Part shown: positions 32,459 to 44,792 of the stretch, one piece after another
How the letters are laid out: every line of letters starts with the position of its first letter
How positions within the stretch are numbered: position 1 is the stretch's first letter
Source of the DNA: Daphnia carinata
Taxonomy: Eukaryota > Arthropoda > Branchiopoda > Diplostraca > Daphniidae
Length of the DNA stretch: 64,000 nucleotides
Direction: 5' to 3'
Assembly (NCBI RefSeq): GCF_022539665.2
Contig: NC_081335.1
Coordinates: 1,984,001-2,048,000 of the forward strand
The notes under the pieces: model-generated
What the model was told of the DNA's origin: nothing
The model's input: the letters and a program-made list of their open reading frames with translations, nothing else
Databases searched by the model: none
Translations under genes and position numbers: made by a program

Positions 32459-35400
32459 ATGTTGAGTGTAGGCAATGCCAATATCTTCCCGGCTCACTTT
32501 GGTGGTTTGTCCGCCGCACTGGCAGCAGGTATGCCCGTTACGGCAGCCGGACCAGTGGCCGTCGGTATGCCCGGCTCAGCTGCTGCTGTTGCCGCCGCCG
32601 CCGCTGCAGCCGCCGCAGCTGGACTTTTGCCCGGAAACGAGATGAACTCGCCATCGCCCGACATGTTCACCACCGTCAGGTATATTCTCTTTTTTCCTTT
32701 TATATATCCCCTCCCCACCTTGATGAAGTTGTGTTTGATCATGACCGAAATATTTTAACCTTTCACTCTTTTTGTGTGTCAATTTTGATATTAAAAAAAA
32801 AAAAGACTGATTCATTATTATTAAAACTAGTTTACATTTTAAGATACGGTCGACAGCTTTTCTTATGTTTATTAGCATCTATTTAAGGAGAAAAGATTTG
32901 ACCATGGCTTTTTTTTTTTCATGTTGTCTCTTCTTACCTTGACAGGCATTTTGTGGCATATATATTTTCTATTTTGGCTACCACTAGCGCGCTCTATATT
33001 CAGCCCATGTTTTTGTTTTTCGAGGGATGGTAACCCCTCTGTGAAAAATTCTCCCCCCATAGCGGATTTTGTTTCCATTGTTCTGTCATGCAGAACCACT
33101 AGAAGTAAGGGGGGGTCTATCGACAGCTGCGCCCCAACTTCCCCCCCTCTTCCTTGCAACCATATCCTATGTTTTTGTTTGATTCATGTCAACTAGATGA
33201 CGTCATACCATGGATACAACACCCTGTGTTTCTAAGCAGCATCTCCAAAGTTATAATTAGAAAACGAGATAGAGCAGGTGCCTTTAAAAAAAAAAGGAAT
33301 GTAGGATTATTTTTTGTGTGGAAAATTCAGTTTTTTTAAACTTAATCGTAGAGGGCAAAAAAAATTGATATCAAGACCTTTTGACTTGCACGCGTTGAGT
33401 CACGCACATTGTCACGTAATGCGGAAATTTCCTCGTTGTTTTCTCGATACGGTCAAAGTTGGTCAACAATTGACCGGATATGGGAGTTGAGAGACACATA
33501 CGAGACAGTGTGGCCTTTTAAACTCTTTTGCGTGCGTAGAAACATTTTCTTTTAAACATTTCGAAAAAAAAAATTCTTATCTTCGATCACGACCCGTTTC
33601 AGATTCTTTTAGGTTGTGACCTGCATTTTTTCCTTCTCTCCCCGGTTAACCCTGCAGGTTTTTCTTTCAGGAGCTTGAAGAAACAAAAGAAGAAAAAATC
33701 CCGAATAAGGTCCGACAGCCCCGAGATTTATTTTACAACAGAGCATAGAGAGCCAACACTTTTAACCTGGATTCTCTCGACCCGTGAAAGTTTTCTTAAC
33801 CTTCCCTCTCTCGCAGGTAGATTAGGCTGACCCTTTGGTATCGTTTTTCTTTTTTTTTTTGGGTCACTTCGTTCAGACTCCCCCCACCAGGACATTATCG
33901 ATTCAAGTCTTCTTCTTCATTGCTAACCCAAAACAGGCGGATTAGATTTGTACCAATCACCATAGTCAAGCAGGATCTTGTAGATCGAGTCTTCTTTTGA
34001 AACGTTCCATCTTTCTGTTTAAATTTTTTTTTTTCTTGAGGAAAAGTCCAGGCCAATTTTGCTGCTAATCGATGTTCCCATGAAAAACTGCTCACGCCAT
34101 CACTTTATGATTCCCTCATTAACGAATCTTATCATTCGGACTTGCAAAGACGAACCACACAAAGAAGTTTTCCCCCCAATCCATACGAGTCGGATCGATT
34201 TATTCCATTATCGATTTCTTCTACCTCCCCCCTTTTTTCGAAGTCGACTTATCATGTGCCCATGACGTCGTCAATTTCAAATTGTCCTGCTTGTTATATT
34301 TCTCCCCTTGCCATTGGGGCCTTTTTTTTCTTCTTTGGGTTATCGACGCAACATTAGCGGACCGCCATTTCCACTAACAATCGATCCAGGGCTTATAGAA
34401 AAAAAACAAAAAAACAAGGGAATTTAAACATTATATTAATACGTTTACAGATACCACACATCGAAATGACATCTAAAGAAAAACATCGAATGTTTTTTTT
34501 TTTCCGGATTGACGACGACCGTAGACGTTTCCTCTTTTTTTTTTTTTTCAAGCGCTTTTTTGGTTGATTTCCTCCTTGAGTTTGCGGATTTCCGGGTCCA
34601 GCTTGTGAAGGGGATGCAAGTTCAACAACTATTGCACACGTAGAAAATTTTAGAAAATTAATAAAAACACGACAAGTCAATTTTTGCTTAGGATTTAAAC
34701 AACTGTCAATTTGACATTGTGTGTCACCGATACGATCTTGTCCGCTTGATCGATTGGGGAGGGCCAGCTTGATTCAGCCCGGTGGGGAAAAATAAGGGTG
34801 GGTTCGGAATAAGGAAGAAAAAAAATTGAGATAGAAAAGGGCGGTTGTCGCTCTCCTTTTTTTTTCTAGCCTTCTCTCTTAACGCCAAGTTGAACACGAA
34901 GAACGGCGGAGGGGGCCTCTACTCCGGATGAGACGCTTCGATGGGATTCAATTAAAAATCTATCAATAGAGAAGGAGTACAGAAAAGAAAAGTGTGTATA
35001 GGACGCTCAACTCGGGCGACGACCGGACTGTGAAATGATTTGGGGATCTTTTCTTTTGCTGATCTAAGCTGCTCCTTTTGTTCAGTTCTCTCTGGCCGAG
35101 CGTGAAACTTCCCTTTAAAAACCATTTTTTTTTTTAAATCTCTTTTCAAATGGGGGGCTCCTGGTAGCTTGAAAATCCGTAGAAAATGAGCATAATAATT
35201 AAAAAAAACTTATTATTCTATCCAAGGCTTACAAACTTTTTTTTTTAAGCCCGTCTCTGCAACTACGGTTGTCGGAGTTAGTGAAAACAAATCCGCTAGA
35301 GGTCCCCCCGTATCCGGTTATATGACTATAGAGCGATTTACTAGTGTGTGTGTGTGTGCTCCTGGCATCTTTTTTTTTCATGCCAGGATAGCCACAATAG

Positions 35401-42313: not shown

Positions 42314-44792
42314 AAGACCTATCTGGTTTGGCTTCTTCATTCAGCCAACGCATTTGGGAATTTGGATCCTCTTTTTCTTTCCACCTTTCTTATCCAAGAG
42401 CGTGTGTGTGTTTGCCTTCGATTTTCCTTGCCCCACCAAACTTATATGCAGTATATTGTATGAACACACCAACCGTAGTAGTTCTGTAAATGTCATGAAA
42501 ATCTCATTGGCTTCTTTAGCCCTCACTTTTGGTAGCAATTTTTTGTTGTTGTTGGGTTTGTAGTAAGTAGTGCCAATCACAATCGAATCAGTAGTTGCGG
42601 TATCTTATGTAACCCGATGCATCTCTCACATTAATGAATCTCTCGTGTCTCCTCATTCTTTTAGTGACTTTGGTAGTTCTTCTTTTATGATTTATCCCAG
42701 TCTGTTTTTTTTTTTTCTTTTTCTTTTTTTTTTTGTATGTCTGTTGTAGTCAGTAGTTAGTGTCGCCGTATAAATTTCCCTCGGTCACGCAACACTCCTG
42801 TTCGTCCCCCCCCCCCTTTTTTTTACACTTGTCATTGTTTAGTGTAGTCACGCCCGAAAATCTTTTGAGCTACTCGACTTGAACCGCATAACAACAATTT
42901 TCGATCGTTGAACGAATTCGAAAAGACGAACATTGGAAAACCAAATGACAAATAAACCAACACTGAGAAAAAACAAAACAAATGTTTTAACTGGGTAGAG
43001 TTTGTGTTTTTTTAGATGATGTAGTTTTCTAATTGTCTTTAAGTTTCAAGTTTGTTAGAGGTACTGGTAGACATTCACATACTACTTTCTTGGACACATT
43101 TTCTTCCCCCAGTTTGTTTGCACTTCCAAAATCTTTTCTCGTATTTTGTGTTGATGTCTTTTGAATTCGTAGAACTCAAAAGAAAAAGAAAGCGTTTGAT
43201 TTCTGTACAAGCAAACCTTAACCAAAGCCTTTCCAATATTCTTTTCTTAGCAGACGAACTTTTGATTCGTCAAGAAGTCCAGTCATCATCAGATGGATTT
43301 CTATTTCTTTTCAATTTTTTTTACACATGGTCGGATCTATGCTCGTTTGAATTGCAATGCACGTCACACAGATGAAAGAAAAAAAAAAGGACCTTTCATT
43401 TTCTATTTGCCCTCATCGACTGTTCCCATTCTCTTTTTCCCTTTCACAATTGAGATGTGGAATGCATGTCTATGAGCTTGCTAAACGCACTAGGACTAAT
43501 CGCCCTTTTATATATATATGGACGTACGTCTCTAATATTTCTCCCGTGTCATGTCTCGTGACGTCTTTTCACCAAAAAAACCTCCCCTTTCCATCCCACC
43601 GACCCATCTTTTCAGACCTCCCTCCCTTACGCTCCCGGGTTCCCCCCTTTTTTTTCACGAAGAAAACTGCCGTCGTCGGCGAGATCGTGTCGCAGCCCGT
43701 AAAAGAAAAGAAAACCTCCTGCACGCTATATCCTCTATCTCACGCAACGATGTGTGTGTATATTTGCAGGCGGAAAATGAGAAAATCGATGAATCTGGAT
43801 TGGGTTGCCCCCCCTCGTTCCATCCTGCGCCGTGTACTCTGCGGATTTTGTGGGCTCACTGATGCGACACTCGTTAGATGGCGTTGACAACGGTCTCCAT
43901 CGCCCGTTGCGCGCGCATGCGCTTTTCGAAACAAAACAATAACTGCCGGTACACGCACAAATATTACATACTAAAGGGGGGTGGATTTCACGCAACGATT
44001 GTCGTCTATTGTATCGACCCGGCCTATCCTCCCCTCTCCTACACACACACACACACTGCAGATGATTGCAGTTCTGTGTGACTCTTAGGAGCTCCGAGCT
44101 ATTCGGCCCCCGCCAGTTACATTGAAAAAAAAGGGGGGTAAATAAAACTGGTGAGGGGGGTTTGTGTGTGCGTGCGCGCTCATTCGGTCGGTGAAACCAA
44201 GAGCGTGAGAGTCGCTCAAAAGCGACACTGGTACGAATAACAACGCGAAAAGAACTGGAGGAAGTCACGGATAGCTTTACAGTATGGCTTCTCTTGTGTG
44301 TGTTACGGTAGCCCAAAGTCTTCTTTTTCGGCCAGAAGTTGCTCGACTCTATCCAAAAGAGGGCGCTAAGGGAGAAAGCTCCCGACTTAATTCCGCTGGT
44401 AAGTCTTGTCGAGTCAGAGAAAAGAAGGGGGGAAAAAACGTCATCAAAGCGACAGGGATAACGTTTGCAAGAGGAGGAGGAGGAGAAAAAAAAGTCAATT
44501 TGGGTAACGTTGAATTCAAGAAGATTAAGGCAGTAAATCCTTTTTCCATTGTTAGAACGTGAAAGAATGGCTTTAAAAATTCGTTTCATCGATTTTCGTG
44601 CGTGTGTGTGTTAAAGCGTGTGCCTATATGTGGGTGTGTCGTTTGGCCCGATGTGTATATGCTGTTTCTCAATCTGTCTCGATTTCAGATTGATAATAAT
44701 TGTTAAAAAAGAAAGGAGAGTAAAAATTTCCTTACCTCGGCATGGAGTTTGTTGGGAGTGACAAACGACATGTATTTCAACAATCGGCTCAT
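34548..44792 (-). CDS. NDUFA4/MLRQ (B12D) family mitochondrial inner-membrane protein
   Basis: Exons on the minus strand: 44736-44792 (ATG AGC CGA...), 37230-37318, 36301-36361, 34548-34628. Phases are 0, 2 and 0, all GT-AG, giving 95 residues. Seen: a short basic N-terminus (MSRLLKYMSF), one membrane segment at about 20-44 (VPLLGIMGVALTGVTGFCIY), then KNDVMLNHHDKIPPWE, which fits the family pattern of Asn/Asp-Val, a basic spacer and Pro-Trp-Glu, then NPKLLNLHPLHKL and a charged C-terminus. Family members are about 80 residues and associate with respiratory complexes I/IV. This one is nearer the NMES1/C15orf48-type proteins than classical NDUFA4. Its first coding intron (about 7.4 kb) contains the last two Musashi exons in antisense, and its other exons lie within the first Musashi intron. 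No open frame above 60 residues exposes it, so it is easily missed. Confidence 0.85.
35528..35543. repeat. Poly-C tract (16 C)
   Basis: Uninterrupted C run inside the first Musashi intron. Confidence 0.95.
36202..36226. repeat. Poly-T tract (25 T)
   Basis: Uninterrupted T run inside the first Musashi intron, 75 bases from an NDUFA4-like exon. Confidence 0.95.
40300..42956 (+). promoter_or_regulatory. msi: Probable long Musashi 3' UTR
   Basis: Downstream of the stop codon is T-rich non-coding sequence with several long T-runs. The best polyadenylation signal is AATAAA at 42951-42956, followed about 45 bases later by a GT/T-rich element (GTAGAGTTTGTGTTTTTTT). The UTR extent is inferred; an earlier signal could be used. 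Confidence 0.45.
42282..42309. repeat. Poly-T tract (28 T)
   Basis: Longest homopolymer in the window; lies in the presumed Musashi 3' UTR. Confidence 0.95.
43871..43888 (+). promoter_or_regulatory. CTCF-like motif 3' of Musashi
   Basis: TCGTTAGATGGCGTTGAC differs at only three positions from the copy at 31,531 and has the same orientation. A second CTCF-like core (CCAAAAGAGGGCGCTAA) is at about 44,353-44,369. Confidence 0.4.

What the first reader, a model, noticed from the sequence alone, without database searches (positions are those of the whole stretch)
32459..44792. Musashi and an NDUFA4-like gene are interdigitated on opposite strands
Musashi exon 1 (32.5 kb), then three NDUFA4-like exons (34.6, 36.3, 37.3 kb, minus), then Musashi exons 2-3 (38.9-40.3 kb), then the NDUFA4-like first coding exon (44.7 kb, minus). 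Neither gene is simply nested in the other; each has coding exons inside an intron of the other. The NDUFA4-like pre-mRNA would run antisense through both RRM exons, so the two transcripts could interfere or pair. The small gene is invisible to ORF scanning and could be missed by annotation.
Basis: partly seen in the sequence, partly recalled or inferred. Interest (0 to 1): 0.75.

Follow-up and report, generated by a model that had tools for sequence, protein, structure and literature searches.

The report
Interleaved Musashi and mitochondrial subunit genes
In what looks like a water-flea genome, a gene for a small mitochondrial-type protein and the gene for the RNA-binding protein Musashi run in opposite directions with their coding exons interleaved; the arrangement looks real but is of a known kind.

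Summary
Musashi coding exons (+) lie at 32459-32679, 38928-39174 and 39379-40299. A four-exon gene for a 95-aa B12D/MLRQ (NDUFA4-family) protein (-) lies at 44736-44792, 37230-37318, 36301-36361 and 34548-34628. All five junctions are GT-AG and in frame. Three exons of the small gene sit in Musashi intron 1, and two Musashi exons sit in the small gene's intron 1. The disputed 44.7-kb exon is supported by an end-to-end Daphnia sinensis relative, by scoring 87 where the next independent one of 166 candidates scores 1, and by an intron at the position and phase of intron 1 of the genome's separate NDUFA4 gene. This is a convergent overlap with interleaved exons, a documented metazoan arrangement. 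Coding exons do not overlap, so complementarity lies in unspliced RNA unless UTRs run long. Expression, regulation and conservation of the interleaving were not testable here: no RNA data and no second crustacean genome were reachable. 'Could be missed by annotation' is weakened by the D. sinensis entry. The small protein lacks NDUFA4's NPDV motif and resembles C15orf48 more in pairwise identity; orthology is unresolved.

The parts
32459..32679 (+). Musashi coding exon 1 (ATG start, ends ...SPDMFTTV + 2 nt, donor GTATAT)
   Evidence: joined exon 1 - exon 2 peptide also seen in P0005 and P0007
34548..34628 (-). B12D/MLRQ gene coding exon 4 with stop (LLNLHPLHKLDPEIRKLKEEINQKSA), inside Musashi intron 1
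   Evidence: matches residues 67-93 of the D. sinensis protein at 96%
36301..36361 (-). B12D/MLRQ gene coding exon 3, inside Musashi intron 1
   Evidence: P0125 reads as the same exon with flanking intron translated (my reading)
37230..37318 (-). B12D/MLRQ gene coding exon 2 (hydrophobic segment), inside Musashi intron 1
   Evidence: P0124 reads as the same exon ending at ...KNDVM (my reading)
38928..39174 (+). Musashi coding exon 2 (start of RRM1), inside intron 1 of the B12D/MLRQ gene
39379..40299 (+). Musashi coding exon 3 (rest of RRM1, RRM2, C-terminus, stop), inside intron 1 of the B12D/MLRQ gene
   Evidence: 299 of 315 alignment columns identical to P0006, 14 of the rest being gaps
40300..42975 (+). 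probable Musashi 3'UTR, if the first AATAAA (42951) is used
   Evidence: ATTAAA 41763 and AATAAA 42951; inferred
44736..44792 (-). B12D/MLRQ gene first coding exon (MSRLLKYMSFVTPNKLHAE, donor GTAAGG); 5'UTR part of this exon probably back to 44810
44920..44950 (-). putative non-coding 5'UTR exon: initiator-like TCAGT beginning at 44952, donor GTAAGT beginning at 44919
   Evidence: inferred from signals only

Best explanation
Two independent protein-coding genes overlap convergently with interleaved exons. Musashi is transcribed rightward from a promoter left of 32.46 kb. A small B12D/MLRQ gene is transcribed leftward from a promoter near 44.95 kb. Each primary transcript passes through the other's exons as intron sequence and splices them out, so each mature mRNA is ordinary. 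Shown: the exons, reading frames, splice signals, absence of coding exon overlap, and relatives of both spliced proteins. Inferred: the outer promoters, the UTR ends, and expression of both genes in this animal. The most likely consequence is none, or mild transcriptional interference when both promoters fire in one cell, rather than a dedicated antisense switch. The small gene probably arose by DNA-level duplication of an intron-bearing MLRQ ancestor, since its intron 1 (and, in one of two alignments, intron 3) shares position and phase with the genome's NDUFA4. It probably encodes an alternative subunit of the NDUFA4/C15orf48 type for cytochrome c oxidase; this function is inferred from the family only.
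For: Four exons join in one frame with GT-AG junctions into a B12D protein. Full-length relatives P0001, P0002 and P0123 cover all four exons. The first exon is the clear best of 166 candidates, 87 against 1 for the next independent one. Intron 1 (phase 0, E19|A20) lies at the column of NDUFA4's first intron (S14|L15) in both alignments made; intron 3 (phase 0, K69|L70) lies at the column of NDUFA4's second (K63|F64) in the alignment. P0124 and P0125 read as exons 2 and 3 with the same edges in other assemblies (my reading of translated intron). Musashi exons 1-2-3 are matched by P0005 and P0007. No coding exon overlap; the longest antisense word between the modelled mature mRNAs is a 17-nt poly-T-rich stretch. 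PMC2291194 calls nested and interleaved genes 'fairly common in metazoan genomes' (passage seen). In PMC2330155 partial convergent overlap is the largest class listed for human, 328 of 749 pairs (passages seen).
Against: No RNA evidence from this organism was available. That P0002 is a spliced transcript is an inference from a 97-aa frame on a 1,010-nt contig. Exon 1 is short (19 codons), was not found by the six-frame search with P0001, and most of its score comes from the closest relative. In the pairwise alignment intron 3 is three residues away from NDUFA4's second intron, not at the same place. UTR ends are guessed from signals.
Confidence: 0.85

Rival explanations
1. The interleaving is a regulatory device: transcription of one gene represses the other, by polymerase collision or by double-stranded nascent RNA, coupling Musashi expression to mitochondrial subunit choice.
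For: About 5.75 kb of CDS spans would be transcribed on both strands. Nested genes in Drosophila show expression divergence attributed to interference, as reported in PMC8467205 (passages seen). Convergent overlaps are better kept than divergent ones between human and mouse, 153 of 328 against 14 of 115 (PMC2330155, passages seen). C15orf48 substitutes for NDUFA4 in vertebrate cytochrome c oxidase (PMC8654286, passages seen).
Against: No expression data. No coding exon overlap, so pairing of mature mRNAs over coding sequence is excluded. In mammals PMC8467205 found no greater expression divergence between nested genes. PMC2330155 reports poor conservation of overlaps across Metazoa. Conservation of this overlap was not testable.
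Confidence: 0.12
2. The 44.7-kb exon does not belong to the small gene; the real first exon lies elsewhere, for example below 38.9 kb, so the small gene would be simply nested in Musashi intron 1.
For: The exon has only 57 coding nt, and the six-frame search with the D. sinensis protein found exons 2 to 4 only.
Against: 87 against 1 for the next independent of 166 candidates; the one candidate below Musashi exon 2 scores -25; end-to-end match to P0001; intron 1 position shared with NDUFA4.
Confidence: 0.04
3. The arrangement is an assembly error, for example a misplaced or inverted segment.
For: Reads were not available to check the joins.
Against: The window lies inside a 9.75-Mb contig. The D. 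sinensis relative, whose contig is 9.25 Mb, includes the exon 1 peptide, so exon 1 and exons 2 to 4 are joined in a gene model of a second assembly; its exon layout, and whether Musashi lies between, were not seen.
Confidence: 0.03

Closest known systems
Interleaved (interdigitated) opposite-strand gene pairs; convergent partial overlap class of PMC2330155
   Same: Opposite strands, 3' ends crossing, each gene with exons in the other's introns, no shared coding exon.
   Different: Here five coding exons of two unrelated genes alternate; the passages of PMC2330155 that I saw do not count this subset apart.
NDUFA4 / COXFA4 (the genome's own copy on contig C4)
   Same: B12D/MLRQ domain; intron 1 at the matching position and phase, intron 3 at a matching column in one of two alignments.
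   Different: The interleaved protein lacks the NPDV motif, has a longer C-terminus and an extra phase-2 intron; its D. sinensis relative is 28% identical to the C4 NDUFA4 over 50 positions.
C15orf48 / NMES1 / MISTRAV
   Same: 45% identity over 56 positions between the D. sinensis relative and tuatara C15orf48, with IYALFTKNDV shared exactly (the window protein reads IYALMTKNDV); no Pro before DV; a C-terminal extension; a transcript of at least four exons in human (PMC8654286, passage).
   Different: No Rfam microRNA match in the window, whereas vertebrate C15orf48 carries miR-147b; the tree does not settle orthology.
Arthropod Musashi (msi)
   Same: Two RRMs and the C-terminal ...NVDMS.FQGVDW..YGMGMYV, as in P0005 and P0013.
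   Different: Nothing unusual seen in the protein; only its intron 1 content is notable.

Membership tests
Interleaved opposite-strand gene pair | Each gene has at least one coding exon inside an intron of the other, on opposite strands | tested here: met
Interleaved opposite-strand gene pair | Both transcripts made in the organism | not testable with these tools
   no RNA data for this genome; relatives only
B12D / MLRQ (PF06522) | Spliced product scores above the Pfam gathering cut-off | tested here: met
   45.3 bits against 21.5
NDUFA4 proper | NPDV motif before the PW motif, as in solved NDUFA4 chains and the genome's own NDUFA4 | tested here: not met
   N-DV in 4 of 4 rows of the window type (window, P0001, P0002, P0123) against NPDV in 4 of 4 NDUFA4 rows
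C15orf48 / NMES1 | Closer to C15orf48 than to NDUFA4 | tested here: inconclusive
   45% against 28% BLASTP identity, but tuatara C15orf48 is also 44% identical to the C4 NDUFA4; only one C15orf48 sequence was used; in the unrooted tree it sits between the groups
C15orf48 / NMES1 | miR-147 precursor in the transcript | tested here: inconclusive
   no microRNA family reached its gathering score in the window; not checked whether Rfam holds a miR-147 model
C15orf48 / NMES1 | Replaces NDUFA4 in cytochrome c oxidase | not testable with these tools
   needs biochemistry
Musashi | Two tandem RRMs with Musashi-type sequence | tested here: met
   two RRM_1 stretches, 112.9 bits; rows named Musashi among the 120 listed of 1,671 hits

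The most novel reading that the evidence does not exclude
The interleaving is old and kept in cladocerans, and it works as a switch: transcription of Musashi shuts off an alternative C15orf48-like cytochrome c oxidase subunit (and the reverse), so an invertebrate has a transcription-coupled version of the subunit exchange that vertebrates run with miR-147b.
Probability: 0.04. Interest if true: 0.7.

Novelty: new member of a known kind. Interest (0 to 1): 0.33.

Why it matters
It is a well-resolved sequence case of two unrelated genes with alternating coding exons, useful for testing how long such overlaps persist and whether convergent transcription through coding exons matters. It also shows a B12D gene in a probable cladoceran, and in D. 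sinensis, that is distinct from canonical NDUFA4 and resembles C15orf48. PMC7793259 describes the NDUFA4-exchange circuit as vertebrate-specific while noting that single members of the family are widespread in plants, animals and parasites (passages seen); a C15orf48-like gene outside vertebrates would bear on how old that exchange is.

Tried and rejected
Viral contigs and prokaryote genome contigs were scanned with Musashi exon 3 (P0006) for a second locus: 419 and 592 stretches matched a pattern and none was confirmed. PDB searches gave no significant match for the small protein (best NDUFA4, E 0.71); its profile found only two unrelated chains. Rfam gave one borderline snoRNA match and no microRNA at gathering thresholds. 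NCBIfam gave nothing for the D. sinensis relative. Nine long frames outside the locus had no Pfam match over a cut-off and were not pursued.

Literature, from listings of titles and abstract beginnings: Daphnia/Musashi/NDUFA4 (30 papers with two terms, 20 listed); interleaved or nested genes (38, 20 listed); overlapping genes and Drosophila (191, 20 listed); Daphnia with nested, antisense or overlapping genes (30, 20 listed); D. sinensis genome (6, 5 listed); phrases for interleaved exons (1 paper, an lncRNA review); Musashi with antisense or nested genes (91, 10 listed). None of the listed rows is about this locus. That is not proof that it is not in print.

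Full report
What is there. The window is part of a 108-Mb assembly (G000, contig C5). On the plus strand, three exons join to a 462-aa Musashi: 32459-32679, 38928-39174 and 39379-40299. On the minus strand, four exons join to a 95-aa protein: 44736-44792, 37230-37318, 36301-36361 and 34548-34628. All five introns have GT and AG ends. Pfam places the small protein in B12D/MLRQ (45.3 bits, cut-off 21.5) and gives the large one two RRM stretches. Musashi intron 1 (32680-38927) holds exons 2-4 of the small gene, and intron 1 of the small gene (37319-44735) holds Musashi exons 2 and 3. 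The CDS spans overlap by 5,752 bp, with no coding exon overlap.

Is the far first exon right? Four lines say yes. (a) A D. sinensis protein, 'hypothetical protein GHT06_019807' (P0001), aligns over the whole product at 84% identity, beginning MSRLLK as here; P0002 (97 aa, from a 1,010-nt contig of unnamed source) aligns at 77%. A profile search added P0123, 61% over 98%, also unnamed. (b) 166 candidate minus-strand first exons (109 distinct ATGs) from about 37.35 kb to the window end were scored against the N-termini of P0001, P0002 and P0123. The 44736-44792 exon scores 87; a shorter start inside it scores 12; the next independent candidate scores 1; mean -34, SD 17. Only one candidate starts below Musashi exon 2, and it scores -25; the best of the 12 starting between 38928 and 40299 scores -4. 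The chosen exon's single scores are 46, 23 and 18, so most of the signal is from the closest relative. (c) The genome's own NDUFA4 (C4, L001) has introns after S14 and K63, both phase 0. The small gene's first intron, after E19, phase 0, falls at the S14 column in both alignments made. Its third, after K69, phase 0, falls at the K63 column in the nine-row alignment but three residues away in the pairwise one. (d) P0124 and P0125 look like exons 2 and 3 with translated intron on the sides and the same exon edges (my reading of the protein letters). Against: the six-frame search of the genome with P0001 found only exons 2-4.

Musashi exon 1 is supported by P0007 (452 aa on a 1,724-nt contig) and P0005. 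Both contain MLSVGNPSIFPAHFGG... through ...SPDMFA... into the exon 2 region and on into the RRMs. P0006, from a 20,320-nt contig, is identical to the exon 3 frame in 299 of 315 alignment columns, 14 of the others being gaps (one search gives 99%, the local BLASTP gives 93% over 68% of the query).

How it works. The genes converge and their 3' ends cross. Signals suggest the small gene starts near 44.95 kb (initiator-like TCAGT at 44952, GTAAGT donor at 44919, an acceptor just before 44810). Musashi may end near 42.97 kb (AATAAA at 42951; a weaker ATTAAA at 41763; further AATAAA at 44141, 44845 and 44931). The minus-strand signals after the small gene's stop include AATATA at 34437 and 34300 and AATAAA at 34204. 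With the ends I assumed, the mature mRNAs share no exon; the longest perfect antisense word between them is a 17-nt poly-T-rich stretch. Complementarity is therefore confined to nascent or unspliced RNA, unless Musashi uses the AATAAA at 44845 or 44931. I take the pair to be two independent genes whose introns tolerate each other, with at most mild transcriptional interference. Expression was not observed, so a regulatory role is neither shown nor excluded.

What the small gene is. The genome search gave two B12D matches, both over the cut-off: the NDUFA4 gene on C4 and this one. The D. sinensis relative is 28% identical to the C4 NDUFA4 over 50 positions and 45% to tuatara C15orf48 over 56 positions, sharing IYALFTKNDV; the window protein has IYALMTKNDV. 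The NPDV motif is present in 4 of 4 NDUFA4 rows and absent from 4 of 4 rows of the window type. But tuatara C15orf48 is also 44% identical to the C4 NDUFA4, the profile's hit to it is weak (E 0.11; 6 of 2,326 candidates had E up to 1), and the nine-row unrooted tree puts it between the groups. So: a B12D paralogue distinct from NDUFA4 and resembling C15orf48, orthology open. Vertebrate C15orf48 replaces NDUFA4 in cytochrome c oxidase (PMC8654286, passages); whether this protein does so is unknown.

Known or new. [quoted passage not shown] PMC2330155 lists partial convergent overlaps as 328 of 749 human overlapping pairs, 153 of them conserved in mouse, and reports poor conservation across Metazoa (passages). 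I recall, with no call to show it, that the 2002 Drosophila annotation review also described interleaved pairs; that paper is not held. The locus is thus a new member of a known kind.

Noticed in passing
L001 1200-2200 (G000 contig C4): Separate canonical NDUFA4 gene, three coding exons, 80 aa; its first intron matches the interleaved gene's intron 1 in position and phase.
   Followed up: yes
window 48620-48753 (-): Borderline Rfam match to SNORA17 (29.9 bits, cut-off 29, E 0.088).
   Followed up: no
window 49321-49992 (-): Long glutamate/proline/alanine-rich frame next to a frame at 49993-50445 (-); no Pfam match over a cut-off for either.
   Followed up: no
window 61095-61406 (-): Gly-His repeat-rich frame, no Pfam match.
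   Followed up: no
window 34548-44792: The small gene spans 10.2 kb for 288 nt of CDS; 7.4 kb of that is the intron 1 that holds the Musashi exons.
   Followed up: partly
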